The notes beneath the pieces are model-generated. The model did no database searches and had not been told where the DNA came from. It saw only the letters and a list, made by a program, of their open reading frames with translations. Source: Occultella glacieicola (GTDB lineage Bacteria; Actinomycetota; Actinomycetes; Actinomycetales; Beutenbergiaceae). Taken from it: 64,000 nt of DNA. The position numbers and the translations under genes are program-made. The stretch is taken from the NCBI RefSeq assembly GCF_004353825.1, contig NZ_SMNA01000006.1:248001-312000 (forward strand), written 5' to 3'. Shown here in pieces: positions 35,363-48,760 of the stretch. How positions within the stretch are numbered: the stretch's first letter is position 1; each line of letters starts with the position of its first letter.

Positions 35363-36220
35363 TCAGGGCCGGGCGTCCGGATCTGCCAGGAACGGCTCGA
35401 CGGCGGTGCGCATGACGTCGGTGGGATCGGCGGCACCGGTCCAGCGGACGAACGCCGTCGCGGCCTGGGCGATCAGCATCCCCTCGCCGTTCGCGGCCGG
35501 TCGCCCGGAGGCGCGGGCCTGCCGGACCAGTTCGGTGGTGCGCGGCAGGTAGACCACGTCGAACACGGCGCACTCCGGTGCCAGCGACTCGACCGCGACG
35601 ACCGGCCCCGGGCTCAGCATGCCCACGGAGGTGGCGTTCACGAAGAGGTCCGCCGCGGCCAGGGTCTCGCCGAGTCCGGGATCGTCGAAGGTAGTCGCGT
35701 CGATCTCGGCTGTGTCCACGATATCGGCGAACTCGGTCGCGAGGCGTTCCGAGTCCGCGAGCCTGAGGTCGGCGACGGTCATGGCGGCGGGGTGCTGGGT
35801 CGCCAGACCGTAGGCGACGGCGTGGGCCACGCCGCCGGCGCCCGCGACCACCACGCGGGCGCCCTCGACGGGCCGCTCGAGGACCGTCGCGAGGCCGGCC
35901 AGGAAGCCCAGGACGTCGGTGTTGAAGCCCACCAGACGTCCGTCCGGCGTCACCTCGACGCTGTTGACGGCCCCGATCGCCGCCGCCGCGGGCTCGACCT
36001 CATCCAGGAGCGGCACGATCGCCTGCTTGTGCGGGGCGGTGATCTGGAACCCGTACCAGCCCTCCTCCCGGGCCCGCGCCACCTGGCCGGGCAGCTCCGC
36101 GGCGGTGACCTCCTCCAGCTGATACCGGCCGTCGATCCCGGCCGCCTCGAAGGCGGCGTTGTGCATGACGGCCGAGTGCACCCGGTTGAGCGGCAGGCCG
36201 AAGAGCGCTGCTGTGCGCAT
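35363..36220 (-). CDS. Shikimate/quinate dehydrogenase-like protein with altered substrate motif
   Basis: 285 residues from an ATG at 36220 with AAGGAG upstream. It has the AroE fold: catalytic Lys65 in TAPHKQ, GAVNSV at 83-88, GFNTD with Asp102, and the NADP-type GAGGVAHAV loop. The shikimate-binding motif usually reads HSxSP; here it is RVHSAVMHN, so the first serine is Val and the Pro is Ala. That suggests a related hydroxy acid rather than shikimate itself. It is the last gene of the SDR/CoA-transferase operon, which is not an aromatic biosynthesis context. Confidence 0.8.
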   Translation of the reverse strand: MRTAALFGLPLNRVHSAVMHNAAFEAAGIDGRYQLEEVTAAELPGQVARAREEGWYGFQITAPHKQAIVPLLDEVEPAAAAIGAVNSVEVTPDGRLVGFNTDVLGFLAGLATVLERPVEGARVVVAGAGGVAHAVAYGLATQHPAAMTVADLRLADSERLATEFADIVDTAEIDATTFDDPGLGETLAAADLFVNATSVGMLSPGPVVAVESLAPECAVFDVVYLPRTTELVRQARASGRPAANGEGMLIAQAATAFVRWTGAADPTDVMRTAVEPFLADPDARP

Positions 36221-36233
36221 CGATGTCTCCTTG

Positions 36234-37007
36234 TCAGCGATCGGTGAAGATGGGGTCGCGCTTCTGCGCGAACGCACGGGCTCCCTCGAGCATGTCCTCC
36301 GTGCCGAACACCGCCTCGGACGCGTCGAGCTCCAGGGCCATGCCCTCCTCGAGGGTCCGGTCGACCGACTCGTCGAGCAGTCGCTTCGCGAGCCGGGTCG
36401 CCAGCGGTCCGCGGGTGGCGACGATGTCCGCCAATCCGCGCGCCGCGTCGAGTGCGCCACCCTTCGGCGCGACCCGGGTAAGGAGTCCGATCTCGAGGGC
36501 CCGGTGGGCGGTCACCGGTTCGCCGAGGAGCACGAACTCCTTGGCGCGGGCCAGCCCGACGAGCCGGGCGAGCCGCTGCGTGCCGCCGCTGCCGGGCAGC
36601 ACGCCGAGCCGCAGCTCGGGCAGGCCGAGCTTGGACTGTTCGCTCGCCACCCGCAGGTCGCAGCACAGTGCCAGTTCCAGGCCACCGCCGAGCGCGTGCC
36701 CCTCGATGGCCGCGATGGTCGGCACGGCCACCTTGGCGAGCTGCCGGTAGACGAGCTTCTCCAGCAGCAGCTTGTCCTCGGCCACCCGGCCGCGCAGCCC
36801 TTCGAACTCGGCGATGTCCGAGCCCGCGCAGAAGGCCCGCCCGCCGGCTCCGGTCACGATCAGGACCCTGGCCCCGCGGTGGTTCGACACCCGGGCCAGG
36901 GCGTCCCGCAGCTGTGCCGTGAACTCCCGGCTGACCACGTTCATCGGTGGGTTGTCCCAGACGATCTCGCACCGTTCGCCCAGCTCCACCCGCATCAGGT
37001 CACTCAC
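36234..37007 (-). CDS. Enoyl-CoA hydratase/isomerase family protein
   Basis: 257 residues from an ATG at 37007 that overlaps the CoA-transferase stop. The crotonase oxyanion-hole segments are seen in FCAGSDIAEF and EGHALGGGLELAL. Both catalytic Glu positions of true hydratases are filled: the one in GGGLELAL and the one in LPELRLGVLPGSGG. It probably hydrates an unsaturated acyl-CoA made from the operon's substrate after CoA transfer. Confidence 0.88.
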   Translation of the reverse strand: MSDLMRVELGERCEIVWDNPPMNVVSREFTAQLRDALARVSNHRGARVLIVTGAGGRAFCAGSDIAEFEGLRGRVAEDKLLLEKLVYRQLAKVAVPTIAAIEGHALGGGLELALCCDLRVASEQSKLGLPELRLGVLPGSGGTQRLARLVGLARAKEFVLLGEPVTAHRALEIGLLTRVAPKGGALDAARGLADIVATRGPLATRLAKRLLDESVDRTLEEGMALELDASEAVFGTEDMLEGARAFAQKRDPIFTDR

Positions 37008-38578
37008 GTCGCTCCGCCCCGGTTGAAGTCGTCGGCCAGGCCCATCGGGCCGGCCCGGAAGATCCGCGGATCCATGGTTCGCAGCTCGGGTGCCACCGCA
37101 GGTCGGAACCCGAGGTGCGCCACCACGTCGCGCTCGGCGTTCAGTCCGTCCGCGATCTCGGTGAGCGTCGGGCCGTCCGCCGTGAGCTCGAACACGGCCC
37201 GTTCGGTGATGTAGCGCACCTGCTGGCCCTTCGCGAGGGCCCGTTCGGCGCTGAAGCTGATCTGGCGGACCTTCGGGACGAACTTGCGGTACTGCCCCTC
37301 CGAGGAGATCGTGAGCCGTCCGGCGTCGACCCCCACCCGCAGGCCCCCGGTCGTCAGGGTGCCGACGAAGCAGACCCGGCCGGTGCGGTTCGCGATGTTG
37401 AGGAAGCCACCCGGCCCCCGCGGCCGCTCGTCGAACTCGTGGACGTTGACGTTGCCCTCGGCATCGACCTCGGCGAAGGACAGGCTCGCGATGTCGAGGC
37501 CGCCGCCGTCGTAGAAGTCGAACATCGAGGGCTGCTCGAGCATGGCCTGGAAGTTCACCCCCGCACCGCCATCGGCGCCGGCGGCGGGCGCACCACCGAA
37601 GATGCCCTGCTCGACGGTCAGGGTCAGGGCGTCAGTGATGCCCTCGGCGGCCGCGATGGCGCCGATCTGCTGGCTGATGCCGAAGCCGAGGTTGCAGATG
37701 TCACCGGGCGCGAACTCCAGCAGGGACCGGCGCGCGATCACCTGGCGCACATCCGGTGCCGCGGGCGCCGCGTCGGGGGCGAGGGGCCGCGGTTGTCTCA
37801 GCTGCCCCGCGAAGTACGGCGAGAACGCGGTGCGGTAGGTCTGCCGCTGGTCCGGGTCGACGTAGACGTGGTCGACCAGGGCCCCGGGGATGCGGACGTC
37901 CCGGGGTCGCAGGCTCCCGCGCTGGACCAGCCGCTTCACCTGCACGATCACCCGGCCGCCGCGGTTGTGGGCGGCCATCGCGAGCGCGAGGGAGTCGCCG
38001 TGCACGGCCTCCTCCTCCATGGACAGGTTCCCGTCCTCGTCGGCGGTGCTGGCACGAATGACGGCGACGTCGATCGGCAGGGCCGGATAGAACAGCCATT
38101 CCCGGCCCGCGAGCTGCACGACCTCGACGAGTTCCTCGGTTGTCACGTCGTTCTGTCGGCCGCCGCCCTGCCGAGGGTCGACGTAGGTACCGAGGCCGAC
38201 GTCGGTGACGAGCCCCGGACGCCCGGCCGCCATCTCCCGGCAGAGAGCGGACAAGACACCCTGCGGGAACGAGTACGCCTCGATCTCGTTCGCTCGGACC
38301 TGTGCGCCGAGCGCAGGCTCGTTGCCGATGTTGCTCCCGATCGTGCGTGCGTGCAGGCCCGGCAGCGCGAGCTGGGACATCCCCCGGTCGGCGAAGTCAC
38401 CGATGCCGACCACGCGCACGGTGGTCAGCCCGCGGGGCACCCCACCGGTGGCGAACCGTTCGGCGAGACTGTCGATGAACAGCTGCGGCACGGCGTGGCC
38501 GGCGCCGGATCCGCCGATCCAGACCGCGTCCCCGTCGCGGACCAGACCGACGGCCTCGGTGACGTCCAGGAGCCTCAT
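37004..38578 (-). CDS. Single-chain acyl-CoA:carboxylate CoA-transferase (family I)
   Basis: 524 residues from an ATG at 38578. The alpha and beta halves are fused, as in YdiF/acetate CoA-transferases. The catalytic Glu is at 323 in LTVEQGIFGGAP, which forms the gamma-glutamyl-CoA thioester; the oxyanion loop GSGAGHAV is at 23-30. The enzyme would activate a free carboxylic acid to its CoA thioester. It sits between an SDR and a hydratase, consistent with a short beta-oxidation-like route. Confidence 0.88.
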   Translation of the reverse strand: MRLLDVTEAVGLVRDGDAVWIGGSGAGHAVPQLFIDSLAERFATGGVPRGLTTVRVVGIGDFADRGMSQLALPGLHARTIGSNIGNEPALGAQVRANEIEAYSFPQGVLSALCREMAAGRPGLVTDVGLGTYVDPRQGGGRQNDVTTEELVEVVQLAGREWLFYPALPIDVAVIRASTADEDGNLSMEEEAVHGDSLALAMAAHNRGGRVIVQVKRLVQRGSLRPRDVRIPGALVDHVYVDPDQRQTYRTAFSPYFAGQLRQPRPLAPDAAPAAPDVRQVIARRSLLEFAPGDICNLGFGISQQIGAIAAAEGITDALTLTVEQGIFGGAPAAGADGGAGVNFQAMLEQPSMFDFYDGGGLDIASLSFAEVDAEGNVNVHEFDERPRGPGGFLNIANRTGRVCFVGTLTTGGLRVGVDAGRLTISSEGQYRKFVPKVRQISFSAERALAKGQQVRYITERAVFELTADGPTLTEIADGLNAERDVVAHLGFRPAVAPELRTMDPRIFRAGPMGLADDFNRGGAT

Positions 38579-38594
38579 GACCGTGGCGCCGTGC

Positions 38595-39401
38595 TCATGG
38601 CATCAGCCCGCCGGAGTTCGGGCCGAGGGTCTGGCCGAGGAACAGTGCGGAGGCGTCCGAGAGCAGGAAGATCACGGCGTCGGCGACCTCCTCGGGCTCG
38701 GCGAACCGTCCGAGCGGGAGTTCGGCCATGCGCTTGCGCCCGACCTCCCCGTCCATCACCGTCCGGCCCATGTCCGTGTTGATCACGCCGGGCGCGACGG
38801 CGTTGGCTCGCACGCCCCGCTGCCCGAACTCCCGGGAGATCGACTTCGCCAGGGCCATCACGCCCGCCTTGGCCGCCGCGTAGTGCGCGACGCCCGGCCA
38901 GCCGACCTGCCCCAGCCGTGAGGCCACGTTCACGATCGACCCGCTGCCCTGTTCCAGCATGATCGGGAGCACCGCCTGACTGGTCAGGAACATCGACGTC
39001 AGGTCCGTCCGGATCACCGTGTCCCACTGCTCCTCGGTGATCTCGAGGAACGCGTTCTCGGGCATGATCCCGGCGTTGTTCACCAGCCCGTCGATGCGCC
39101 CGAACGCCTCGTGGGTCGCGGCCACGACCCGGGCGATCTGCTCGCGATCGCGCACGTCGCAGCGTCGGACGAGCGACCGTCGGCCCAGGGCCTGGATCTC
39201 GGTCGACGTCTTCTCCGCTCGTTCGTCACTCGTGTGGAACGTGAACGCCACGTCGGCGCCCGCTGCCGCGGCGGCCAGCGCCACGCTCCGTCCCAGCCCC
39301 TTCGCTGCTCCGGTGACCAGGACGACGCGGCCCGCCAGGGGGCCGCTGCTGGGACCGGTCCGTGCCGGCCGTGGGTCGGAGATCGCTGTCGGTGTCGCCA
39401 T
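38595..39401 (-). CDS. SDR-family oxidoreductase
   Basis: 268 residues from an ATG at 39401 with GGAGGG upstream; an upstream ATG at 39413 is possible. The cofactor loop is TGAAKGLG, NNAG is present, and the catalytic set is Ser in NVASRLG and YAAAK. It is close to 3-oxoacyl-ACP reductase-like SDRs and would reduce or oxidise a hydroxyl/keto group with NAD(P). It is the first gene of the four-gene operon; a LacI-type operator lies 16 bases upstream of its start. Confidence 0.88.
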   Translation of the reverse strand: MATPTAISDPRPARTGPSSGPLAGRVVLVTGAAKGLGRSVALAAAAAGADVAFTFHTSDERAEKTSTEIQALGRRSLVRRCDVRDREQIARVVAATHEAFGRIDGLVNNAGIMPENAFLEITEEQWDTVIRTDLTSMFLTSQAVLPIMLEQGSGSIVNVASRLGQVGWPGVAHYAAAKAGVMALAKSISREFGQRGVRANAVAPGVINTDMGRTVMDGEVGRKRMAELPLGRFAEPEEVADAVIFLLSDASALFLGQTLGPNSGGLMP

Positions 39402-39416
39402 TGAACCCTCCAAATC

Positions 39417-39428
39417 GGAAGCGCTTTC
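39417..39428. promoter_or_regulatory. LacI-type operator 1 (divergent SDR/amidohydrolase)
   Basis: GGAAGCGCTTTC differs by one base from the perfect palindrome GAAAGCGCTTTC found at 43958. It lies in the 45-base gap between divergent start codons. TAGACT at 39433-39438, and its mirror on the other strand, could be overlapping -10 boxes, making the plus transcript nearly leaderless. Confidence 0.65.
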
Positions 39429-39446
39429 AGTCTAGACTTCCACGAC

Positions 39447-40511
39447 ATGACCTCAAAAGCAACCAGCCCGACGGCGCCCGGCGGCGACCCGGTCATCGAC
39501 CTGCACGCGCACATCCTGCCGCCCGCACTCCTGCACGCACGTGCGTGGTCCGGCGTGCCCGACCCGTGGCGCCCGGCAGCCGTCGGGCCGGACCGGGCGG
39601 CCGCCGCGGACGAACCCTGGTTGCAGGTCACGATCGGCGATCGACCCACCTCCCCGATCCCACCGGCCCTGGTGTCCCTACCGCAGCGCCTCGCGACGAT
39701 GGACCACCTCGGGGTCGACGTCCAGGTGGTCTCGCCATGGATGGAGCTGTACCCGCGTGGGCTCGCCGCGGATGGCGTGGAGGCGCACGTCCGGGTCATC
39801 AACGACGCGGTGGTGCAGGAGGTCCACGCGGCTCCGGGCCGCCTCCTCGGCCTGGGCATGGTCCCGCTGACGAGCGGCGCCGCCGCCGCACACGAGGCCC
39901 GACGCGCCGTCGCCGAACTCGGCCTGGCCGGCGTCATCGTCGCCACCTCCGGTGTCGGTCTCCCGTTGGAGGACGCCGACCTCCGCCAATTCTGGGCCAC
40001 AACCGCCGAACTGGGCGCCGTGGTCCTGATCCACCCCGTGCTGCCCCTCGCCGCGGAACGGATGCGGGTCCCCCCGCTCGGCGATCTGATCGGGCATCCA
40101 CTGGAGACCACCACGGCGGTCGCCACCCTGCTGCGCACCGGGATCCTCGACCGCCATCCGGACCTGCGCCTGGTGGTGCCGCACGGTGGCGGCGCCATCC
40201 CCGCGCTGGCCGATCGCATCGGCGCACTCTGGGAACACTCCGGCGGCCCGGTGACGGCCACCGCGCCGGCCGCGACCCTCGGGCGGATCCACTACGACGT
40301 GCTCACCCACTCCGACCGTGCGCTGCGCTGGCTCGAGGAGTTCACCGAGCCCGGCCGACTCGTCCTCGGCACGGACTACCCGTTCGCCACCGGAGACGTC
40401 GATGCGCTCGCCCGGGCCCGCCGGGTGCTGACCTCTGCGTCCCTTCCCGGGGCGCTCGGGCGGAACGCCGCGGCCCTCCTGCCCCACGGCCTCCGGACAC
40501 CCCGTGCTTGA
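39447..40511 (+). CDS. ACMSD-type amidohydrolase (amidohydrolase_2 family)
   Basis: 354 residues from an ATG at 39447. The metal site is DLHAHI (HxH), LIHP, PHGGG and the terminal Asp in GTDYPF, the set found in the aminocarboxymuconate-semialdehyde decarboxylase family. Members decarboxylate ring or muconate acids or hydrolyse lactones without redox chemistry. It diverges from the SDR/CoA-transferase operon and shares its operator, so both probably act on one substrate. Confidence 0.85.
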   Translation: MTSKATSPTAPGGDPVIDLHAHILPPALLHARAWSGVPDPWRPAAVGPDRAAAADEPWLQVTIGDRPTSPIPPALVSLPQRLATMDHLGVDVQVVSPWMELYPRGLAADGVEAHVRVINDAVVQEVHAAPGRLLGLGMVPLTSGAAAAHEARRAVAELGLAGVIVATSGVGLPLEDADLRQFWATTAELGAVVLIHPVLPLAAERMRVPPLGDLIGHPLETTTAVATLLRTGILDRHPDLRLVVPHGGGAIPALADRIGALWEHSGGPVTATAPAATLGRIHYDVLTHSDRALRWLEEFTEPGRLVLGTDYPFATGDVDALARARRVLTSASLPGALGRNAAALLPHGLRTPRA

Positions 40512-40534
40512 CAGGCTGACCGCTTCGATATAGA
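40508..40534 (+). promoter_or_regulatory. Promoter overlapped by operator 2
   Basis: A perfect TTGACA -35 box (40508-40513) overlaps the amidohydrolase stop. TATAGA at 40529-40534 is the likely -10 box, with a short 15-base spacer. The operator begins at 40533, so repressor binding would block the promoter. Confidence 0.5.
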
Positions 40535-40544
40535 AAGCGCTTAC
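40533..40544. promoter_or_regulatory. LacI-type operator 2
   Basis: GAAAGCGCTTAC, one mismatch from the perfect palindrome at 43958. It overlaps the -10 region and lies 41 bases before the start of the oxidoreductase gene at 40586. Confidence 0.65.
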
Positions 40545-40585
40545 AGCTTCGTCCTCGAACCTCACCCCAACGGCGGGAGCGCACA

Positions 40586-41749
40586 GTGGAAGACATCCGG
40601 CTCGGCATCATCATGAACGGCGTCACCGGGAGGATGGGCACCCGGCAGCATCTCGACCGTTCGATCATCGCGATCCGCGATCAGGGCGGCCTCGAGCTCG
40701 GGGACGGGCGGCGCATCGTCGTCGACCCGATCCTGGTCGGCCGCAATGCCGCGAAGGTGGAGCATCTCGCGAAGCAGTACGGCGTGGAGCGGTGGACCAC
40801 GAACCTCTCCGAGGCCCTCGCAGGTGACGAGGACACGATCTACTTCGACGCACAGACCACGAACCGGCGTTTCGACGCCATCGCGGAGGCCATCGGGGCC
40901 GGGAAGCACATCTTCTGCGAGAAGCCGACCGCGACCAGCCTCGCCGACGCCCTCGAGCTCGCCCGGCTCGCCAAGGAGGCGGGCGTCGTCTCGGGGGTCG
41001 TGCAGGACAAGCTGTTCCTGCCCGGGGTCCGCAAGCTCAAGCGTCTGATCGACGGCGGGTTCTTCGGCGAGCTCATCAGCCTTCGCCTCAACTTCGGCTA
41101 CTGGGTGTTCGAGGGCGACTGGCAGCACCTCAACCGGCCGTCCTGGAACTATCGCGCCGAGGACGGCGGCGGCATCATCCTCGACATGTACCCGCACTGG
41201 CGGTACGTGCTGGACCACCTGCTCGGACCGGTGCGGTCCGTCCTGTGCCACTCCCAGGTCCACATCCCCGGCCGGTGGGACGAGAACGGGCAGCCGTACA
41301 CGGCCACGGCCGAGGACGCCTCCTACGGCATGTTCTCCTTCGACTCGGACGTCGTCGCCCAGTTCACCACGTCCTGGGTGACCCGTCCCTACCGGGACGA
41401 GATCGCCGAGTGGCAGCTGGACGGGACCCTGGGCAGTGCGATCGCCGGCCTGCGGAACTGCCGAGTCCAGTCGCGGGCGAACACCCCGATGCCAGTCTGG
41501 AACCCGGACATCCCGAACCCGATCGACTTCCGGGCCGGCTGGCTGGAGGTGCCGGACAACGGCGAGCACGAGAACGCCTTCAAGGTCCAGTGGGAGATGT
41601 TCCTCAAGCACCTCGTCGGATCCCACGAGCAGTTTCCCTGGGACTTGCTCGAAGGTGCCAAGGGCGTCCAGCTCGCCGAGTTGGCGCAGCAATCGGTCGA
41701 CGAACGCCGCTGGGTCGACGTTCCGGAACTCCGGATCCCCGCATCATGA
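40586..41749 (+). CDS. Gfo/Idh/MocA-family dehydrogenase
   Basis: 387 residues from a GTG at 40586 with GGGAG upstream. The N-terminal strand and loop read GIIMNGVTGRMG, unlike the usual GxGxxG but of the same fold. The EKP signature is CEKPTATS near 112. The catalytic region contains GGGIILDMYPHWRYV, where Asp and His would act. It would oxidise a hydroxyl group of a polyol or sugar acid. It forms an operon with the TIM-barrel gene 42 bases downstream. Confidence 0.85.
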   Translation: MEDIRLGIIMNGVTGRMGTRQHLDRSIIAIRDQGGLELGDGRRIVVDPILVGRNAAKVEHLAKQYGVERWTTNLSEALAGDEDTIYFDAQTTNRRFDAIAEAIGAGKHIFCEKPTATSLADALELARLAKEAGVVSGVVQDKLFLPGVRKLKRLIDGGFFGELISLRLNFGYWVFEGDWQHLNRPSWNYRAEDGGGIILDMYPHWRYVLDHLLGPVRSVLCHSQVHIPGRWDENGQPYTATAEDASYGMFSFDSDVVAQFTTSWVTRPYRDEIAEWQLDGTLGSAIAGLRNCRVQSRANTPMPVWNPDIPNPIDFRAGWLEVPDNGEHENAFKVQWEMFLKHLVGSHEQFPWDLLEGAKGVQLAELAQQSVDERRWVDVPELRIPAS

Positions 41750-41791
41750 CCGGTGTGGCCGCTCGCGTGGCGTCGGAACGGGGTCCGGACC

Positions 41792-42598
41792 ATGGCTGAT
41801 CCCAGCAGGCTCTCGCTCAACCAGATCACGGTCCTGTCCTGGGATCTCGCCCGGGCCGTCCGCGGGTGCGCCGAGCACGGGATCGGTTCCGTCGGGGTCT
41901 GGATCGACAAGGTGGAGGAGGCCGGACTCGCGCAAGCCGTCCGGTTGCTCCGCGACCACGACCTCGAGGTGTCGAGCGTGTGCCGGGCGGGCTTCTTCAC
42001 CGACGACCGCCCGGCGGCCACGATCCGGGCGGAGAACGCCCGCGCCGTCGAGATCGCCCACGAGGTCGGCGCCGCCTGCCTCTACATCGTCTGCGGTGGG
42101 CTGGGCCCCGACCGGGACCTGGCCGGTGCCCGCAGCAGGTCGCTCGAGGGGCTCCGCGACCTCGCCGACCTGGCGGGCGCGGCCGGGGTGCGGCTGGCCC
42201 TCGAGCCGCTCCACCCGATGATGTGCGCCGACCGGGGTGTCGTCGTCACGCTCGACCAGGCACTCGACCTGGTCGACGAGATCGGCGACGACACCGTCGG
42301 GGTCGCCGTCGACACCTACAACGTCTGGTGGGACCCACGGCTCGGCGGGGCCATCGAGCGGGCCGGCGACCGGGTGATCGGGTACCAGGTCTGCGACTGG
42401 CTCGTGCCGCAGCCCCATCCGACGTTCGGCCGCGGGATCCCGGGCGACGGCGTGATCGACCTCCGCTCCGTGACGACCGCCGTCGAGGCCACCGGCTTCA
42501 CCGGCGCCATCGAGGTCGAGATCTTCAACGAGGACGTCTGGGCCACCGATCCCGACGACGTCCTGACCGCCATCCGCTCCTCGTTCGAGCTGGTCTGA
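41792..42598 (+). CDS. Sugar phosphate isomerase/epimerase-like TIM barrel
   Basis: 268 residues from an ATG at 41792. The xylose-isomerase-like fold shows metal ligands: Glu in LALEPLHP, Asp in VAVDTYNVWW, His in PHPTFGRG and Glu in AIEVEIFNED. This family includes inosose isomerases, ketose epimerases and the 3-dehydroshikimate dehydratases of the AsbF/QuiC type. Because an AroE-like gene is in the same regulon, the dehydratase activity is worth considering, but the sequence does not decide it. Confidence 0.82.
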   Translation: MADPSRLSLNQITVLSWDLARAVRGCAEHGIGSVGVWIDKVEEAGLAQAVRLLRDHDLEVSSVCRAGFFTDDRPAATIRAENARAVEIAHEVGAACLYIVCGGLGPDRDLAGARSRSLEGLRDLADLAGAAGVRLALEPLHPMMCADRGVVVTLDQALDLVDEIGDDTVGVAVDTYNVWWDPRLGGAIERAGDRVIGYQVCDWLVPQPHPTFGRGIPGDGVIDLRSVTTAVEATGFTGAIEVEIFNEDVWATDPDDVLTAIRSSFELV

Positions 42599-42638
42599 GC
42601 GGTGCGTGGCGGATCGTCACCGGCCCGCCACGCACCGC
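42599..42638. terminator. Bidirectional terminator-like hairpin
   Basis: A perfect 14-base stem (GCGGTGCGTGGCGG and its complement at 42625-42638) surrounds a 12-base loop. It begins immediately after the TIM-barrel stop and ends 17 bases before the end of the convergent LacI gene, so it can serve both transcripts. No T-run is visible, which is common in such GC-rich genomes. Confidence 0.7.
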
Positions 42639-42655
42639 CGCCGGCCGGCGCCGGG

Positions 42656-43687
42656 TCAGGCGGGCGGCGGCGCCGTACTCTGCCGCATGATCACGTTGCC
42701 CTGATAGGACACCGTCCGCGGCACGGCCGACTCGGTGAGCGCGAGGTCGACGGCCTGCTGCCCCACGAGGTCGAGCGGAATGCTCACCGTGGTCAGCGCC
42801 GGAGTGATCTGCGCGGCCAAGGGCACGTCCGCGAACCCGGCGACGGACACCTCACCGGGCACGTCGACGCCGAGCCTCTGCAGCCCGGCCACCACGCCGG
42901 CCGCGACCACGTCGAAGACGCCGAACACGCAGGTGGGCCGATCGGGCGAGGACTTGATCGCCTCCGCGACCCGCATCCCGGCCTCCCGGGAGGTGTCGCC
43001 CGGATAGAGGTTGTCCTTCGCCACCTCGATGCCGTGATCGGCGAGCCCCTGGCGGAAGCCGTCGACGCGGTCCCGGACCGTCACCAACGCCGTCGGCCCG
43101 ACGGCGATCGCGAAGGTGCGGTGCCCGAGCTCCACGAGCGCATGGGCGAGACTGCGTGCGCCCTCCTTGTTCCCGACCACCATCCGGTGCCCGACCCCAC
43201 GTCCGCCGGCGAGGGAGACCACGACCCCGCCGGCGGCCTCGAACTTCGAGAGCTCGTCCATGATCGGGCCGTACTGGGCCTTCTGGGTGTACCCGCTCGC
43301 GGCCATGATGATCGCCCGCGGCCGCTGGGCCCTAAGCAGTTTGACGTACTTCAGTTCCGATGCCGGGTCGCGGTAGGTGCACACCATCGTGACCAGCAGG
43401 TCGTGCTTGTCCGCGGCGCGCACCACCGAGCTGGAGAGCAGCCCGAAATAGGCGTCACTGACATCGTGGACGACGAGCCCGATCGTGTTCGACGTGGCAC
43501 TCGCAAGCGCCCGAGCGTGCAGATTCGGTTCGTAGCCGAGTTCCGCCGCCGCGGCCAGGACCCGCTCCCGCAGGTCCCCCCGACCCCGATAGGTCGGCGA
43601 GTTCGCGTTCAGGACCCTCGACGCCGATGCCAACGACACCCCGGCCAGTTCGGCCACGTCCTGCAGGCGCACGGTCGTACGCTTCAC
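42656..43687 (-). CDS. LacI-family repressor of the CoA-transferase/Liv-type regulon
   Basis: 343 residues from a GTG at 43687, chosen because GGAGGG lies 8 bases upstream. The HTH is RLQDVAELAGVSLASASRVL, followed by the hinge helix YEPNLHARALAS, which inserts in the minor groove of operators with a central CG. The C-terminal domain is a periplasmic-binding-like sensor. Four GAAAGCGCTTTC-like sites at neighbouring promoters, one upstream of this gene, make it the likely regulator of the region and of itself. Confidence 0.9.
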   Translation of the reverse strand: MKRTTVRLQDVAELAGVSLASASRVLNANSPTYRGRGDLRERVLAAAAELGYEPNLHARALASATSNTIGLVVHDVSDAYFGLLSSSVVRAADKHDLLVTMVCTYRDPASELKYVKLLRAQRPRAIIMAASGYTQKAQYGPIMDELSKFEAAGGVVVSLAGGRGVGHRMVVGNKEGARSLAHALVELGHRTFAIAVGPTALVTVRDRVDGFRQGLADHGIEVAKDNLYPGDTSREAGMRVAEAIKSSPDRPTCVFGVFDVVAAGVVAGLQRLGVDVPGEVSVAGFADVPLAAQITPALTTVSIPLDLVGQQAVDLALTESAVPRTVSYQGNVIMRQSTAPPPA

Positions 43688-43789
43688 GGCATCCACCCTC
43701 CCGATCTGCCGGCCCGTCACAGGCGACGCGGTGCCCGAGGTGCGCTATCCCCGGCGGTCGCTTGTCTCGGGCGCAGTCTATCCCTATCC

Positions 43790-43801
43790 GAAAGCGCTTA
43801 C
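43790..43801. promoter_or_regulatory. LacI-type operator 3
   Basis: GAAAGCGCTTAC, identical to operator 2, lies 102 bases upstream of the lacI start. It suggests autoregulation, or looping with operator 4, which is 168 bases away (about 16 helical turns). Confidence 0.65.
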
Positions 43802-43925
43802 GTCATTGAGATCGATCGGCGCGTCGCCGGTTCGCACCGTGAACGACGCGTCCAATCTGAACCGTTGGCGATAGATTCTCTCCAAGCGAAGGCCTCAGAG
43901 TCGCACAAGGAGGAAACCCGAAGAC

Positions 43926-43954
43926 CTTGCGCAACAGCAGGGTCGGTTCTATCG
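43926..43954 (+). promoter_or_regulatory. Promoter of the Liv-type operon
   Basis: A TTGCGC -35 box, a 17-base spacer and a TATCGT -10 box. The perfect operator at 43958-43969 begins 3 bases after the -10 box and covers the expected start point. Confidence 0.5.
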
Positions 43955-43957
43955 TAC

Positions 43958-43969
43958 TGAAAGCGCTTT
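43958..43969. promoter_or_regulatory. LacI-type operator 4 (perfect palindrome)
   Basis: GAAAGCGCTTTC, a perfect 12-base palindrome with a central CG as preferred by LacI-family repressors, placed at the start point of the transporter operon. Confidence 0.75.
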
Positions 43970-44000
43970 CGATGCGCTGTTCATACTCCAAGGAGGCAGC

Positions 44001-45233
44001 ATGACTACGAAGACGTGGGCGGCAACCGCCGCAACGACTGCCGCGATCGCTCTGGCCGTGGCCGGTTGCGCCGGCCAGTCCGGCGGTGGCAGCGACGGCG
44101 AGGAGAACCCTGACGATCCGATCGTCATCGGTGTCTCCCTCCCCCTGACCGGTGACTTCGCCGAGCCCGGCAAGGGTGTGCAGCGCGGGTACGAGGTCTG
44201 GGTCGACGAGATCAACGCGAACGGTGGCCTGCTCGGCCGTCAGGTCGAGCTCATCGTGCTGGACGACGGCTCCGACGCGGCGCGGATCGTGTCCGACTAC
44301 GAGTCCCTGATCGCGCAGGAGGGGGTCGACCTCCTGTTCGGTCCGTTCTCCACCCGACTCGTCGTGCCATCGGCTCGGGTCGCCCAGGAGTACGGCATGC
44401 TCTTCGTCGAACCCGCCGGCGCCGCCGCCGAGGTGTTCGAGTCCGGCTTCGACAATCTGTTCTACGCGGCGCCGGCCATCGCCGACGACCACTACAACCA
44501 CCTCGCGGAGTACATCCTGTCGATGCCGGAGGACATCCGGCCGCAGACCGCTGCCTACGCCGCCCAGGACGACCCGTTCGCCCAGGGCACCGCCTACGGG
44601 TTGCGGGACCAGTTGGAGGCGGCCGGGATCGAGACCGTCGTCGACGAGGTGTATCCACCGAACGCCACCGACTTCAACCAGATCGCCGCACAGATCGCGG
44701 CCGCGGATGCGGACATCGTCGTCGGCGGCACCCTCTACCAGGACGCTGTCAACCTCATCATCGCGATGCAGCAGCTCGGCTACCAGCCGCGGATGGCCGC
44801 GTTCTCCACGGCGCCGACGAACCCGGAGTTCCCGGAGGCGCTCGGCTCCGCCGTCGAGGGGATCCTGTCCCCCACCGGCTATGCGCTCGAGGCGAGCTAT
44901 CCCTCGAACGTCGAGTTCGTCGAGGCCTACAACGAGATGTTCGGCACCGACCCCCAGGAGGACGAGGCGAACGCCTACACCACCGGCCAGGTGGTCGCGG
45001 CGGCCGTGGAAGCCGTCGGGTGCGCCGAACAGGGCGAGTGCCAGCAGCAGCTGATCGACTGGCTCCGCACCAACTCGGTGGAGACGGTGGTCGGTGAGCT
45101 CAGCTGGGACGAGGCCGGCCGACCCCAGGGCGCCCACATGATCCTCCAGTACGTCGGCGGCGAGATCCAGATCGTGCTCCCCGAGGGCGAGGCGCAGATG
45201 ACCGAACTCGTCTACCCGAAGCCCGAGTGGTGA
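44001..45233 (+). CDS. Branched-chain-amino-acid-type (HAAT) binding lipoprotein
   Basis: 410 residues from an ATG at 44001 with AAGGAGG upstream. The lipobox is LAVAGCAG after a hydrophobic signal. The mature part is the LivJ/AmiC-type fold (IGVSLPLTGDFAEPG near 48, then GLLGRQVELIVLDDGSD). The family binds amino acids but also amides, urea, aromatic and hydroxy acids. Here the operon is under a sugar-type LacI repressor and next to CoA-ester catabolism, so the ligand is probably not a branched-chain amino acid. Confidence 0.88.
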   Translation: MTTKTWAATAATTAAIALAVAGCAGQSGGGSDGEENPDDPIVIGVSLPLTGDFAEPGKGVQRGYEVWVDEINANGGLLGRQVELIVLDDGSDAARIVSDYESLIAQEGVDLLFGPFSTRLVVPSARVAQEYGMLFVEPAGAAAEVFESGFDNLFYAAPAIADDHYNHLAEYILSMPEDIRPQTAAYAAQDDPFAQGTAYGLRDQLEAAGIETVVDEVYPPNATDFNQIAAQIAAADADIVVGGTLYQDAVNLIIAMQQLGYQPRMAAFSTAPTNPEFPEALGSAVEGILSPTGYALEASYPSNVEFVEAYNEMFGTDPQEDEANAYTTGQVVAAAVEAVGCAEQGECQQQLIDWLRTNSVETVVGELSWDEAGRPQGAHMILQYVGGEIQIVLPEGEAQMTELVYPKPEW

Positions 45234-45240
45234 TCGACGA

Positions 45241-46128
45241 GTGGTCTCCGGCGCTCTGATCTTCCAGAGTCTGATCCTGGGCCTGATGCTGGGAGGGCTG
45301 TACGCCCTCCTGGCATCAGGGCTCACGATGTACTTCGGGATCATGCGGGTGGTGATGTTGGCGCACTCGGCGGCGATCATCCTGTCCGCCTACATCGCCT
45401 GGCGGTTCGCGACCCTGACCGGCCTCGACCCGATGCTGTCCCTGCTCGGGACCGTGCCCGTGTTCTTCCTGATGGGGTTCCTCACCCAGCGGCTGCTCGT
45501 GTCCCGGCTGAGGCCGGCGACGATGTCGATGATGTCGGTGCTGCTGACCTTCGCGATCGCCCTGATCATCGAAGGACTGCTCGGGTATTTCTTCACCGGT
45601 ACCCAGCGTCGGATCAACCTCCCCTACGGCACCGCGAGCGTGAACGTGCTGGGGGCCTCGCTTCCCGTGGTGCAGATCATCTCGTTCCTGCTGGCCACGG
45701 TCAGCATGGCCGCGCTGTACGTGGTCCTCAAGAAGACCCGCTTCGGCTGGGCGCTGCGAGCAACCATCCAGCACAAGGAGGCCGCCCAGCTCGTCGGCAT
45801 CAACACCGAGCGGCTGTCCGGCTACGGCTTCGGGCTGGGCCTGGCCACCGCGGCGGTCGGGGGTGCGGCCCTCTCGCTCCAGGTCACCATCTACCCATCG
45901 CTGCACTGGCACTGGATCGGGCCGCTGATGGCAATCATCGTCGTCGGTGGGCTGGGGAGCATCCCTGGCGCCGCCATCGCGGCCCTCGTCCTCGGCACCA
46001 TGCGGGTGATGCTCGAGATCCCGTTCGGGCCGACGTGGGCCCAGACGATCTTCTTCGTCGCCCTCTTCGTCACCCTGATGGTCCGTCCCCAAGGATTCTT
46101 CGGAGGTCGTCTTGCCCAGCGCTTCTGA
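45241..46128 (+). CDS. LivH-type ABC transporter permease
   Basis: 295 residues from a GTG at 45241. About eight hydrophobic helices are seen; the N-terminus GGLYALLASGLTMYFGIMRV is typical of LivH, and RATIQHKEAAQLVGIN is the cytoplasmic ATPase-contact loop. It pairs with the LivM-type subunit, whose TTG start lies inside its 3' end. Confidence 0.9.
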   Translation: MVSGALIFQSLILGLMLGGLYALLASGLTMYFGIMRVVMLAHSAAIILSAYIAWRFATLTGLDPMLSLLGTVPVFFLMGFLTQRLLVSRLRPATMSMMSVLLTFAIALIIEGLLGYFFTGTQRRINLPYGTASVNVLGASLPVVQIISFLLATVSMAALYVVLKKTRFGWALRATIQHKEAAQLVGINTERLSGYGFGLGLATAAVGGAALSLQVTIYPSLHWHWIGPLMAIIVVGGLGSIPGAAIAALVLGTMRVMLEIPFGPTWAQTIFFVALFVTLMVRPQGFFGGRLAQRF

Positions 46129-47269
46129 CCACATCGTCGGCACCGGCGTCGCCCGGACCCGCGACCGTGGCGTCGTCCGGATCATCAAGGGCGTCGTCCT
46201 GCTCGCCGGAGCTGCCCTGCTCGTGAGCTGGCCGTCGCTCGCGGCGAACCCCTACCTGGTCTCGGCCGGCGTCGTCGTCCTCAACTACGCGGTGTTCGCG
46301 AGCTCCTGGAACATCATGGGCGGCCTCACCGGGTACATCTCGCTGGGACATGCGGCCTACTTCGGACTGGGCGCCTACGGCACCGCGCTGCTGATCCAGA
46401 ACTTCGACATACCGTCGTTCGGCGCCTGGTTCCTGGCCGGACTGCTCACCCTGGTCATCGCGATCCCGGTCGGCTGGGCGGCCCTGCGGGTGCGTGGCGC
46501 GTCGTTCGTCATCGTGACGATCGCCCTGGTCCTCGTGCTCGCCCTGATCTTCCAGAGTCTGCGCGGGATCACCGGCGGTTCGGACGGGCTGATCGTGCCG
46601 CGTCCGTTTCCCGACCTCCTCCGGCCCGAGCACCACGCCACGTTCTACTACATCTACGCCGGTCTGCTCGCGGTGGTCCTCGCGGTCTGGTTCGTGATCG
46701 CCCGGTCCCGGTTCGGAGCCGGCCTCAAGGCCATCCGGGAGGACGAGGACAAGGCCGAGTCGCTCGGGATCCCCACCACCCGGTACAAGGGCATCGCCCA
46801 CGCGCTGTCGGCCTACTTCGTGGCGCTCGGCGGTGGCCTGTACGCCCTGTGGTTCGGCGACCTCGACCCGATCATGCAGTTCTCCGTCCTGCTCAGCGCC
46901 GAGGTCGTGCTGATGGCCCTGCTCGGCGGCGTGCGGTTCCTGCTCGGCCCGCTCGTCGGGGCCATCATCGTCGGCACCGCACTGGAGTACTTCGTCCTCA
47001 ACTTCGGGGAGACCCAGCTGCACCTGGTCGCGACCGGCATCCTGCTCGCCGTCGTCGTGCTGTTCCTGCCCGACGGCGTGCTGGCCGGCCTGAGTGAACT
47101 GGTCGCCAGGTTCCGCCCGCAGGCCACCTCGATCCGGGAGATGACCGCGGAGGAGCTGCAGAACCAGCGCGTCTCCGAGGTCCGCCCCGGGTCCGGCGTC
47201 GACGCGGACCCCACGTCGTCCGAACGCAGCGAGCAGGAGCTCGCACCCGTGGAACGGAGTCCGTCATGA
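46112..47269 (+). CDS. LivM-type ABC transporter permease
   Basis: 385 residues from a TTG at 46112 with CGGAGG upstream, overlapping the LivH-type gene by 17 bases. Membrane helices and the segment GLTGYISLGHAAYFGLGAY are family-typical; KAIREDEDKAESLGI is the ATPase-contact loop. A hydrophilic tail of about 50 residues at the C-terminus is longer than usual. Confidence 0.9.
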   Translation: MPSASDHIVGTGVARTRDRGVVRIIKGVVLLAGAALLVSWPSLAANPYLVSAGVVVLNYAVFASSWNIMGGLTGYISLGHAAYFGLGAYGTALLIQNFDIPSFGAWFLAGLLTLVIAIPVGWAALRVRGASFVIVTIALVLVLALIFQSLRGITGGSDGLIVPRPFPDLLRPEHHATFYYIYAGLLAVVLAVWFVIARSRFGAGLKAIREDEDKAESLGIPTTRYKGIAHALSAYFVALGGGLYALWFGDLDPIMQFSVLLSAEVVLMALLGGVRFLLGPLVGAIIVGTALEYFVLNFGETQLHLVATGILLAVVVLFLPDGVLAGLSELVARFRPQATSIREMTAEELQNQRVSEVRPGSGVDADPTSSERSEQELAPVERSPS

Positions 47270-48039
47270 CCGCCACCGTCGAGCCGACCTCACCCGCGCC
47301 GGCGACGCCGAGTGTGCTCAGCACCCGTGGCCTGACGAAGTCCTTCGGTGGCGTGCACGCCGTCCGGGACGTCTCGGTCGGCTTCCTCGAGGGCAAAGTC
47401 AACGGGCTGATCGGGCCGAACGGGTCCGGCAAGACCACCTTCTTCAACATGGTCACGGGCATGATCAAGCCCGACTCGGGCGAGGTCATGCAGGGCGAGC
47501 GCTCCATCACCCGCTGGGCCCCGCACCGGATCGCCCGGCTGGGCATCGGCCGCAGCTTCCAGCTGTGCCGGGTGTTCCCCCGCCTGACCGTGCTGGAGAA
47601 CCTGCTGGTGGCGGTGCGCCCCACCTCGCTCGCCTCGGCCCTGCTCGGCGCGCACCATGCCCCGACCGTCGCGCGGGCCCGGGAGATCCTGGCGCGGGTC
47701 GGCATCGAGCACCTCGAACACGCCGAGGCGCGGGACATCTCCTACGGGCAGCAGAAACTCCTGGAACTCGGTGGCGTGCTGATGGCGGACCCCCGCATCA
47801 TCATGCTCGACGAGCCGGCCGGAGGCGTGAACCCCGCCCTCATCGAACGGATCGCCACCCTCATCCGGGAGCTCAACGCCGAGGGCCGCACGTTCATCGT
47901 CGTCGAGCACAACATGGATCTGGTGATGAACCTCTGCGACCACATCGTGGTCTTCGACCGCGGGCGGCCGATCGCGGCCGGGGTGCCCGCCGAGATCCAG
48001 TCCGACCCAGCCGTATTGGAGGCCTACCTTGGAGTCTGA
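47266..48039 (+). CDS. LivG-type ABC transporter ATP-binding protein
   Basis: 257 residues from an ATG overlapping the previous stop (ATGA). Walker A is GPNGSGKTT, the signature is ISYGQQKLLELG, Walker B is IIMLDEPAGG and the switch His is in VEHNMD. It powers uptake with the LivF-type subunit. The LivG-specific RSFQLCRVFP Q-loop region is present. Confidence 0.92.
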   Translation: MTATVEPTSPAPATPSVLSTRGLTKSFGGVHAVRDVSVGFLEGKVNGLIGPNGSGKTTFFNMVTGMIKPDSGEVMQGERSITRWAPHRIARLGIGRSFQLCRVFPRLTVLENLLVAVRPTSLASALLGAHHAPTVARAREILARVGIEHLEHAEARDISYGQQKLLELGGVLMADPRIIMLDEPAGGVNPALIERIATLIRELNAEGRTFIVVEHNMDLVMNLCDHIVVFDRGRPIAAGVPAEIQSDPAVLEAYLGV

Positions 48040-48760
48040 CCTGCTCCTCGAGCTGAAGGATGTCGAAGCCGGCTACGGGAAAGCCGCGCTGGTGCTGCGC
48101 GGCCTGTCGATCGAGGTGGCGCGGAGCTCCATCGTCTGCCTGGTCGGGCCGAACGGCGCCGGCAAGTCGACGGTGCTGAAGGTGGCCAGCGGCCTGCTCA
48201 GGCCGCGCTCCGGGCAGGTCCTCCTGAACGGCGAGGACATCACCGGCCGCAGCCCGCAGGACCTCCTGCGCCAGGGGTTGGCGCACGTGCTCCAGGGGCA
48301 CAGCGTGTTCCGCGAGATGACGGTCGCGGAGAACGTCCGCCTCGGCGGGTACACGGTGCGGGACCAGGCGACCATCAGCGAGCGGATCGGCCTGGTCCAG
48401 GACCTGTTCCCGGTGGTGGGCGAACGCTGGGATGCCATGGCCGGACTGCTCTCCGGCGGTCAGCAGAAGCAGGTCGAGTTCGCCCGGGCCCTCATCGCGA
48501 GTCCGCAGGTGATCCTGCTCGACGAACCCTCGATGGGTCTGGACCCGAAGACGACCGCCACGGTGTTCGAGCAGATCGTCCGGATGCGCGATGCCGGGGT
48601 GGCCGTCCTGCTCGTCGAGCAGAACGCCCGCCGGGCGCTGGAGACGGCGGACGTCGGGTGCGTCCTCGACCTCGGCCGGGTCCACATCTCGGGCCCGGCG
48701 ACCGACCTGCTGGGTGACTCCCGACTCGGCGACCTCTATCTCGGCGGCCGCGCCCGCTGA
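48029..48760 (+). CDS. LivF-type ABC transporter ATP-binding protein
   Basis: 243 residues from a TTG at 48029 with GGAGG upstream, overlapping the LivG-type gene by 11 bases. Walker A is GPNGAGKST, the signature LSGGQQKQVEFAR, Walker B VILLDEPSMG and the switch His position is occupied by Gln in VEQNAR, as is normal in LivF. It completes a full HAAT transporter. Confidence 0.92.
   Translation: MESDLLLELKDVEAGYGKAALVLRGLSIEVARSSIVCLVGPNGAGKSTVLKVASGLLRPRSGQVLLNGEDITGRSPQDLLRQGLAHVLQGHSVFREMTVAENVRLGGYTVRDQATISERIGLVQDLFPVVGERWDAMAGLLSGGQQKQVEFARALIASPQVILLDEPSMGLDPKTTATVFEQIVRMRDAGVAVLLVEQNARRALETADVGCVLDLGRVHISGPATDLLGDSRLGDLYLGGRAR

What the first reader, a model, noticed from the sequence alone, without database searches (positions are those of the whole stretch)
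35363..48760. Unassigned catabolic regulon: CoA-transferase, hydratase, SDR, AroE-like, ACMSD-like, Gfo/Idh, TIM barrel and a HAAT importer
At least thirteen genes in four transcripts appear to share one LacI repressor. The enzymes suggest import of an acid, redox and dehydration steps like those for quinate or shikimate, decarboxylation or lactone opening, CoA activation and a beta-oxidation step. No known pathway uses this set, and no ring-cleavage dioxygenase is present. A sugar-type repressor controlling a Liv-type transporter is also unusual.
Basis: inference. Interest (0 to 1): 0.78.

Follow-up and report, generated by a model that had tools for sequence, protein, structure and literature searches.

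The report
LacI-controlled pathway for unknown acid
Thirteen neighbouring bacterial genes, switched by one repressor, form a conserved import-and-breakdown unit for a still unidentified small acid, probably a sugar-like one, using a combination of enzymes I could not match to a described pathway.

Summary
The 13 genes lie where stated (35363-48760). The LacI-type palindrome AAGCGCTT occurs four times in 64 kb (0.12 expected), all at this cluster's promoter regions. Gene order and all four sites recur in two Pseudactinotalea genomes. In 16 loci of cultured actinomycetes, SDR, CoA-transferase, hydratase, AroE-like, Gfo and LacI are present in 16 of 16, and all 50 exact sites lie before Gfo, SDR/amidohydrolase, LacI or the importer. 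So this is one real, patchily distributed LacI regulon of five transcription units. Importers differ between lineages (HAAT here, NMT1-type in 7 of the 16, sugar-type in one MAG). The HAAT binding protein lacks residues that hold an alpha-amino group (recalled). The AroE-like protein has an altered substrate motif; a second AroE with the usual motif exists. Recurrent partners elsewhere (DUF993/DapA-like lyases, diketoacid-hydrolase-like FAH proteins, aldehyde dehydrogenases, altronate dehydratases, glycerate kinases) favour a sugar-acid-like substrate over quinate/shikimate. The substrate is not identified, and its class is inference. New variant of a known kind.

The parts
35363..36220 (-). 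AroE-like dehydrogenase, presumed catabolic paralogue (RxHS motif)
   Evidence: Pfam PF08501/PF18317; below the NCBIfam AroE cut-offs; clade with the same motif; second AroE elsewhere in the genome
36234..37007 (-). enoyl-CoA hydratase, both catalytic Glu positions present (roles recalled)
   Evidence: PF00378 E=7.4e-53; alignment
37004..38578 (-). family I CoA-transferase, E. coli YdiF-like (524 aa)
   Evidence: PF01144; 2ahu (YdiF) E=6.8e-130
38595..39401 (-). FabG-like SDR, first gene of the minus-strand operon
   Evidence: PF13561; NF009466 226.9 bits, cut-off 222
39417..39428 (.). LacI operator GGAAGCGCTTTC, shared by the SDR operon and the amidohydrolase gene
   Evidence: exact core kept in 15 of 16 loci
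39447..40511 (+). ACMSD-like Amidohydro_2 enzyme, decarboxylase or hydrolase; metal-ligand positions present
   Evidence: PF04909; ACMSD 4ign E=4.4e-25
40507..40532 (+). promoter-like TTGACA...TATAGA abutting the operator before Gfo (read by eye)
   Evidence: sequence; the consensus scan listed 0 promoters
40533..40544 (.). LacI operator GAAAGCGCTTAC before Gfo
   Evidence: exact core kept in 16 of 16 loci, within 50 bases of the Gfo match
40586..41749 (+). Gfo/Idh/MocA dehydrogenase of the 3oqb type
   Evidence: PDB 3oqb E=1.3e-148
41753..42598 (+). AP_endonuc_2 TIM barrel isomerase/epimerase/dehydratase (7vpf, SMc04130 type)
   Evidence: PF01261; PDB 7vpf E=4.1e-70
42656..43720 (-). LacI-family repressor (likely start GTG near 43684, by alignment)
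   Evidence: NCBIfam LacI-family models; helix-turn-helix alignment
43790..43801 (.). LacI operator before lacI itself
   Evidence: exact core kept in 12 of 16 loci
43959..43970 (.). LacI operator GAAAGCGCTTTC (perfect palindrome) before the importer
   Evidence: kept in 3 of 3 HAAT-bearing relatives among the 16 loci
44001..45233 (+). HAAT (Liv-type) substrate-binding protein
   Evidence: PF13458 E=3e-58; 3ip5 (Atu2422, name recalled) E=3.2e-29
45241..46128 (+). HAAT permease
   Evidence: PF02653
46112..47269 (+). HAAT permease
   Evidence: PF02653
47266..48039 (+). HAAT ATPase
   Evidence: PF00005, PF12399
48029..48760 (+). HAAT ATPase
   Evidence: PF00005

Best explanation
This is a single LacI-repressed catabolic regulon for one hydroxylated, sugar-acid-like carboxylate. 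Shown by sequence: LacI-type operators lie before the SDR-CoAT-ECH-AroE operon, the divergent amidohydrolase gene, Gfo-TIM, lacI itself and the HAAT importer, and this arrangement is conserved. Inferred: the repressor sits on promoters until the substrate or an intermediate releases it. The HAAT importer brings in the acid. Gfo oxidises one hydroxyl to a ketone. The TIM barrel isomerises, epimerises or dehydrates the keto compound. The ACMSD-like enzyme removes CO2 or hydrolyses a bond; in other genomes DapA-like (DUF993/DHDPS) lyases or FAH-type diketoacid hydrolases are added or found instead. The AroE-like enzyme and the SDR interconvert keto and hydroxy groups. The CoA-transferase activates the resulting short acid. 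The hydratase, and probably the SDR as 3-hydroxyacyl-CoA dehydrogenase, carry it through a beta-oxidation-like end to central metabolism. The order of the middle steps and the substrate are not established.
For: Regulon: 4 of 4 AAGCGCTT sites of the window fall here, expected 0.12. The same four positions are kept in both Pseudactinotalea genomes, where all 13 genes are syntenic at about 49-81% identity. In 16 loci of cultured actinomycetes all 50 exact sites lie before Gfo (16 of 16 loci), SDR/AmiH (15 of 16), lacI or its divergent neighbour (12 of 16) and the HAAT SBP (3 of 3 with one), none farther than 181 bases from the gene match; 0.07-0.15 were expected per locus. One pathway: in these 16, SDR, CoAT, ECH, AroE, LacI and Gfo 16 of 16, TIM 15, AmiH 14, DUF993 9. 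In the 38 loci whose CoAT is only 38-47% identical, an AroE match at E 1e-6 was seen in 0 of 38 (14 of these loci are under 15 kb). CoAT-AroE-DUF993-TIM adjacency in Paraburkholderia caribensis and DUF993 near the core in MAG L057 link the Gfo/TIM side to the CoAT side. Sugar-acid flavour: FAH partner in Caballeronia at 399.9 bits to 2,4-didehydro-3-deoxy-L-rhamnonate hydrolase, cut-off 500; DHDPS plus aldehyde dehydrogenase in MAGs L054 and L056; glycerate kinase beside Gfo-DUF993-TIM in 3 of 6 records viewed that hold the trio (not in 58, 59, 73; DUF993 checked in all six); altronate dehydratase in 4 of 8 records viewed around AroE-like or EthD-like relatives (not in 95, 99, 100, 101). Non-amino-acid ligand: the acidic residue of LivJ and 3ip5 aligns to Ser/Thr in this SBP and the binding Thr to Ala (alignment; residue roles recalled).
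Against: The proteobacterial AroE-like proteins form a separate clade from the window's and are only about 28-35% identical to it where matched, so their sugar-acid partners are an analogy. Of 8 CoAT-centred plasmid records viewed, 4 have an AroE-like gene (L101, L102, L115, L116) and 4 have none (L117-L120). No acid-sugar dehydratase of the enolase or altronate type is among the 13 genes, and DUF993 was not found in the window's genome (that search rang in none of its 14 controls, so this absence is weak). Extra LacI-type sites exist elsewhere in the genome, one beside a paralogous LacI-Gfo-TIM set, so cross-regulation is possible. AmiH is missing beside the core in 2 and TIM in 1 of the 16 loci. 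The four MAG loci, two of them actinobacterial, lack Gfo and TIM beside the core and, like the proteobacterial loci, have no operator before these genes. MAG L057 has a sugar-type binding protein instead of an acid-type one. Importer type is weak evidence for ligand type. No expression or biochemical data were available.
Confidence: 0.5

Rival explanations
1. The substrate is a hydroaromatic acid (quinate- or shikimate-like) degraded without aromatisation: AroE-like and Gfo oxidise ring hydroxyls, CoAT activates the carboxylate, SDR and ECH open the ring in the manner of BadH/BadI.
For: An AroE fold, an AP_endonuc_2 TIM barrel, CoAT, SDR and crotonase are the families such a route would use; no ring-cleavage dioxygenase is among the 13 genes.
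Against: The AroE HSxSP motif is replaced in 20 of 20 clade members aligned. QuiC match only 35.5 bits of 1200. ECH keeps both hydratase Glu positions, whereas BadI-type hydrolases differ (recalled). DapA/FAH/aldehyde dehydrogenase/glycerate-kinase partners point to sugar acids.
Confidence: 0.2
2. Two separate modules under one repressor: Gfo-TIM handles a sugar or glycoside, while SDR-CoAT-ECH-AroE (with AmiH) handles a released acid, for example of an acylated or glycosylated acid.
For: Gfo-DUF993-TIM occurs without a CoAT or AroE match in 6 plasmid records and Gfo-TIM in own-genome L015; SDR-CoAT-ECH-AroE occurs without Gfo/TIM in four MAG loci.
Against: DUF993/TIM join CoAT-AroE directly in Paraburkholderia caribensis, and DUF993 lies near the core in MAG L057. 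Gfo stays beside the core in 16 of 16 cultured-actinomycete loci. I saw no glycosidase or esterase among the 13 genes; relatives were not searched for one systematically.
Confidence: 0.22
3. An aromatic or heteroaromatic acid pathway: the ACMSD-like enzyme decarboxylates the acid and ring cleavage happens elsewhere in the genome.
For: The amidohydrolase is closest to ACMSD and isoorotate (uracil-5-carboxylate) decarboxylase; HAAT importers often carry aromatic acids (recalled); one LigB-family protein is elsewhere in the genome; a Novosphingobium homologue at 37% sits with VOC and FAH genes.
Against: No ring-cleaving or ring-activating oxygenase is among the 13 genes, nor among the neighbour ORFs that I scanned with Pfam (a chosen part of the neighbourhoods; the LLM-class enzyme of the MAG loci scores as an F420-type oxidoreductase); the CoA steps and Gfo/TIM would be unexplained; the intradiol dioxygenase match in the genome is marginal (27.1 bits).
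Confidence: 0.06
4. Chance adjacency of unrelated genes.
For: All enzyme families are common.
Against: Conserved gene set and conserved operators in 16 loci of cultured actinomycetes.
Confidence: 0.02

Closest known systems
Non-phosphorylative L-rhamnose/L-fucose/pentonate pathways (dehydratase, 4-dehydrogenase, FAH-type diketoacid hydrolase or DapA-type aldolase; recalled)
   Same: Keto-acid dehydrogenases under sugar-type regulators; related clusters carry FAH at 399.9 bits to the diketo-rhamnonate hydrolase model or DHDPS plus aldehyde dehydrogenase
   Different: No acid-sugar dehydratase and no FAH among the 13 genes; an AroE-fold dehydrogenase; CoA-transferase, hydratase and SDR added; Liv-type importer
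Quinate/shikimate catabolism (QsuD/QuiC type)
   Same: AroE fold plus AP_endonuc_2 TIM barrel
   Different: Both below the curated models; altered AroE substrate motif; no ring-cleavage step; CoA steps added
myo-Inositol catabolism (iol)
   Same: Gfo dehydrogenase plus AP_endonuc_2 TIM barrel under a repressor
   Different: Gfo 54 bits to IolG, cut-off 355; no ThDP hydrolase IolD among the 13 genes
Tatumella 5-ketofructose reductase, a shikimate-dehydrogenase relative acting on a sugar (PMC7954740, passages read)
   Same: A shikimate-dehydrogenase-related protein that works on a polyhydroxy ketone; 7cok, named 5-ketofructose reductase, is the third-best PDB match of the AroE-like profile
   Different: Different motif residues; the same paper found another putative shikimate dehydrogenase inactive on 5-ketofructose, so function cannot be transferred
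Gfo-DUF993-TIM trios (function unknown to me) on proteobacterial plasmids
   Same: Gfo 57-60%, TIM 44-47% identity, DUF993 61-65% to the P. caribensis copy
   Different: Varied carriers (TRAP, tricarboxylate-type, MFS, ABC); glycerate kinase in 3 of 6; no CoAT or AroE match at E 1e-6 in the six stretches

Membership tests
LacI-repressed catabolic regulon | LacI-family gene with palindromic operators before itself and before the catabolic units | tested here: met
   4 sites in cluster, 0 elsewhere in window; conserved in relatives
LacI-repressed catabolic regulon | Genes co-derepressed by inducer or lacI deletion | not testable with these tools
   needs expression data
Shikimate/quinate dehydrogenase (AroE/QsuD) | Score above curated AroE or QsuD cut-off | tested here: not met
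   best 214.5 vs 252; TIGR00507 191.6 vs 200.2; quinate/shikimate dehydrogenase NF010631 144.8 vs 515
Shikimate/quinate dehydrogenase (AroE/QsuD) | HSxSP shikimate-carboxylate motif (residue roles recalled) | tested here: not met
   RxHS in 20 of 20 aligned clade members; the genome's other AroE has HSLSP
Shikimate/quinate dehydrogenase (AroE/QsuD) | Catalytic Lys and Asp of the fold (roles recalled) | tested here: met
   K65 and D102 kept
3-Dehydroshikimate dehydratase (QuiC) | Score above curated model | tested here: not met
   35.5 vs 1200 bits
ACMSD-type decarboxylase subgroup of Amidohydro_2 | Metal-ligand set HxH, H, H, D (roles recalled) | tested here: met
   H20, H22, H196, H246 and D310 invariant in three orthologues, aligned to ACMSD
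ACMSD-type decarboxylase subgroup of Amidohydro_2 | Decarboxylation of a named substrate | not testable with these tools
   needs assay; no NCBIfam model reached E 0.001
Enoyl-CoA hydratase | Both catalytic glutamates (roles recalled) | tested here: met
   GGGLELA and PELRLG motifs
HAAT importer for alpha-amino acids | Acidic residue and Thr holding the alpha-amino group (recalled) | tested here: not met
   Ser/Thr and Ala at those positions (sequence alignment only)
iol inositol pathway | IolG-level Gfo and IolD present | tested here: not met
   Gfo 54.2 vs 355 bits; no ThDP enzyme among the 13 genes

The most novel reading that the evidence does not exclude
A previously undescribed, CoA-dependent pathway for a polyhydroxylated acid, modular and scattered over Actinomycetota, a Chloroflexota MAG and (by analogous parts) Proteobacteria, in which shikimate-dehydrogenase-fold enzymes were apparently recruited more than once, beside related CoA-transferases, as catabolic keto-acid dehydrogenases with non-shikimate substrates.
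Probability: 0.4. Interest if true: 0.65.

Novelty: new variant of a known kind. Interest (0 to 1): 0.48.

Why it matters
It gives a testable unit (one repressor, one binding protein, seven enzymes) for three protein groups to which I found no assigned function: the 3oqb-type Gfo, the SMc04130/7vpf-type TIM barrel and, in relatives, DUF993. Identifying the ligand of one binding protein would give a function to the cluster in the 16 loci of cultured actinomycetes compared here, and would show what such shikimate-dehydrogenase homologues do. It also warns that the AroE-like gene here should not be annotated as shikimate dehydrogenase without a test.

Tried and rejected
Quinate/shikimate route: considered first; weakened by the AroE motif and cut-offs and by partner genes. 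Phloroglucinol-type route (reductase, cyclohydrolase, CoA-transferase): one paper search, one review listed and not opened; not pursued. C-glycoside or rhizopine readings of Gfo plus TIM: no Rieske oxygenase or further C-deglycosidase-type gene is among the 13 genes; not tested further. Sigma-70 promoter and terminator scans listed none. Plasmid search with the window's AroE gave no match at 1e-35. Paper searches for DUF993 and SMc04130 gave 0 papers. The PF06187 search of the own genome rang in none of its controls, so it does not prove absence. Structure prediction and fold search were not run: sequence matches already fixed the folds, and they would not name a substrate. The genome-contig scan used two peptide patterns of CoAT, so its 59 loci are a lower bound. 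In one search hits covering under half of the query or below identity floors set in the script were dropped, so a dash there means none above those limits; the weak AroE matches of L116 and the SDR and LacI matches of L101 fall away for that reason (compare). L094 was left out of the 16 loci because its contig begins inside CoAT; L055 was left out of the AroE tree because its contig ends inside the gene. In the amidohydrolase set the L044 and L049 rows are a different Amidohydro_2 gene, and they are not counted as AmiH.
Full report
What is there. The window is high-GC (0.667-0.746 in 2 kb steps) and lies on contig C20 of a 5.34 Mb genome. Gene spacing gives tight groups. SDR, CoAT, ECH and AroE run on the minus strand with small gaps or overlaps. 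Gfo and TIM are 3 bases apart. SBP, two permeases and two ATPases are 7 bases apart or overlapping. AmiH and lacI stand alone. The GH65 gene after the second ATPase is convergent.

The regulator. AAGCGCTT, a LacI-type palindrome, occurs four times in 64 kb, at 39419, 40535, 43792 and 43961 (expected 0.12; none of 100 shuffles had 4). A longer motif with two mismatches allowed was not informative (10 found, 8.35 expected). In the whole genome GAAAGCGCTT lies at 7 distinct sites, 4 of them here. The other three are at C20:426599, in a stretch with matches to sugar-type ABC permeases (29-33% identity), and at C21:245956 and C21:258638. The last stands before a paralogous LacI (38%), in a stretch that also has Gfo (52%) and TIM (43%). 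So a paralogous repressor with a similar site exists, and cross-talk is possible. Before Gfo a TTGACA / TATAGA pair abuts the operator (read by eye); the consensus scan listed no promoter.

Conservation near by. Two genomes of the same family (G012, G013) carry all 13 genes in order at about 49-81% identity, with the same four operators. Within the family, AmiH at E 1e-40 was found in 3 of 24 genomes including the window's own, and in none of the 3 other genomes of its genus. In 396 genomes of the order, CoAT at E 1e-60 was found in 21, but only the two Pseudactinotalea genomes reached 77-78% identity; the next best was 50-51%. In 396 genomes of the phylum, AroE at E 1e-45 was found in 5: the window's own and four of family f41 at 36-39%.

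Conservation far off. Scanning the GTDB genome collection with two CoAT peptide patterns gave 59 loci. Of these, 21 are 66-78% identical and 38 are 38-47% identical. Among the 38, AroE was matched in 0, DUF993 and TIM in 0, and Gfo in 1, weakly (25% over 216 residues) (14 of the 38 are under 15 kb). Among the 21, 16 are from cultured actinomycetes (Georgenia, Pseudactinotalea, Nonomuraea, Actinomadura, Pseudonocardia, Spongiactinospora, Streptosporangium), one more (L094) is cut by a contig end, and four are MAG loci (L054 Chloroflexi, L055 Acidimicrobiia, L056 Solirubrobacterales, L057 unclassified). In the 16: SDR, CoAT, ECH, AroE, LacI and Gfo 16 of 16; TIM 15; AmiH 14; DUF993 9; HAAT binding protein 3; NMT1-type binding protein like that of L045 7. 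AAGCGCTT totals 50 in these 16 loci. By nearest gene start, 16 are before Gfo, 15 before SDR/AmiH, 16 before lacI or in the gap it shares with its divergent neighbour (12 loci, four of them with two sites), and 3 before the HAAT protein; the largest distance is 181 bases. L045 lacks an exact site before SDR but has a one-mismatch site. The MAG and proteobacterial loci have no site before these genes.

Extra partners elsewhere. MAG loci carry an LLM-class enzyme between ECH and AroE in 4 of 4 (NCBIfam TIGR03619, 190.5 bits vs 166.9, scanned for L054 only). Around three of them (L055 is too short to tell) there are FAH-fold proteins, DHDPS or DUF993, and aldehyde dehydrogenases; L057 also has a sugar-type binding protein with ABC domains. 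Caballeronia NK8 has LacI, an NMT1-type importer, MaoC, ECH, an unassigned EthD-like protein, FAH, CoAT (53%), AroE-like, IclR, SDR and a second CoAT. Its FAH scores 399.9 bits against 2,4-didehydro-3-deoxy-L-rhamnonate hydrolase, cut-off 500. Paraburkholderia caribensis has CoAT, AroE-like, DUF993 and TIM in a row, followed by an MFS carrier nearest the sialate:H+ symport model (247 of 604 bits). Bosea has AroE-like, a polar-amino-acid-type importer, MaoC and a CoA-transferase 42% identical to the window's. Gfo-DUF993-TIM without CoAT or AroE occurs in Erwinia, Paracoccus, Qingshengfaniella, Chelatococcus, Paroceanicella and Pseudoroseomonas records, beside glycerate kinase in 3 of those 6; a seventh Gfo record (Haladaptatus) has no trio. 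In P. denitrificans and Azospirillum the AroE-like gene lies with DHDPS, aldehyde dehydrogenase and altronate dehydratase; in two Paraburkholderia records AroE-like, Gfo, FAH, MhpD-type and altronate dehydratase genes share a stretch. Against this reading: a Streptomyces homologue sits beside a polyketide synthase and a DAHP synthase, that is, in a biosynthetic setting; Caballeronia insecticola beside a keto-acid dehydrogenase complex; Aminobacter has the EthD-like gene with Gfo, TIM and ThDP enzymes but no altronate dehydratase; and of 8 CoAT-centred records viewed, 4 have no AroE-like match (L117-L120).

AroE-like protein. It keeps the fold's catalytic Lys65 and Asp102, Asn86 and the late Gln, but 20 of 20 clade members aligned have RxHS in place of HSxSP, and Gln (19) or Gly (L057) in place of Asn59 (residue roles recalled). 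The genome's other AroE, at C20:73021, next to an mltG-like gene (name recalled from the sequence), has HSLSP. In the tree the proteobacterial (and one Streptomyces) AroE-like proteins form a separate, well supported clade (100/100), so pairing with this CoA-transferase family arose more than once or was exchanged (rooted at the midpoint for drawing, and the other AroE of the genome is a long branch whose place is unsure). The third-best PDB profile match is 5-ketofructose reductase 7cok. PMC7954740 (passages read) states that such a reductase is related to shikimate dehydrogenases, and also that another putative shikimate dehydrogenase was inactive on 5-ketofructose.

Other enzymes. Gfo matches 3oqb (E 1.3e-148) and TIM matches 7vpf and SMc04130; the PDB names shown give no specific function, and I found no paper on SMc04130. 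Of the NCBIfam models shown for the enzymes, only the SDR passes a cut-off (FabG subfamily, 226.9 vs 222). ECH has both hydratase glutamates. AmiH keeps the metal ligands. The binding protein aligns to 3ip5 and LivJ, but the acidic residue and Thr that hold the alpha-amino group (recalled) are Ser/Thr and Ala.

Judgement. One conserved LacI regulon: confidence about 0.9. A hydroxylated, sugar-acid-like substrate ending in CoA chemistry: about 0.5. Substrate and step order are open. Paper searches that answered. Only PMC7954740 was opened (passages); the rest were seen as listings.

Noticed in passing
L015 (G000 C21:243000-262000), 12005-15645: A paralogous LacI-Gfo-TIM set (38/52/43% identity) with a LacI-type site before its lacI and an alpha-L-fucosidase-like gene beyond; a second, separate use of the Gfo-TIM pair in the same genome.
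   Followed up: partly
L042 1836-3305 (Georgenia subflava): A glucose-6-phosphate-dehydrogenase-like gene is inserted between the HAAT binding protein and lacI, with a LacI-type site at 3357 before it; perhaps NADPH supply or an extra oxidation step.
   Followed up: no
L102, L104, L105, L106, L107, L108, L121: DUF993 occurs beside or near the AP_endonuc_2 TIM gene in all seven and the 3oqb-type Gfo in six (61-65% identity to the L102 copy), three times with glycerate kinase; no paper in the library names DUF993.
   Followed up: partly
L101 7355-8095: A 246-aa protein without Pfam or NCBIfam match (two EthD-like halves by eye) has relatives in 29 plasmid records; in the six stretches viewed (L101, L115, L116, L126, L127, L128) it lies with FAH, AroE-like, Gfo or TIM genes.
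   Followed up: partly
window 28380-30698, 48769-51117, 57921-59234, 62418-63491: The cluster lies among glycan-degradation genes: alpha-N-acetylglucosaminidase (NAGLU), GH65, GH125 and GH76, with sugar-type ABC importers.
   Followed up: no
L047, L051, L059, L099 upstream of lacI: Paired operators 69-70 bases apart before lacI; in L047 the divergent neighbour is an importer permease gene next to an NMT1-type binding protein, suggesting importer control by the same LacI although the importer family differs.
   Followed up: partly
L054-L057: An LLM-class oxidoreductase (F420-type by model for L054) sits between ECH and AroE in all four MAG loci, where Gfo and TIM were not found beside the core; possibly a replacement dehydrogenase.
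   Followed up: no
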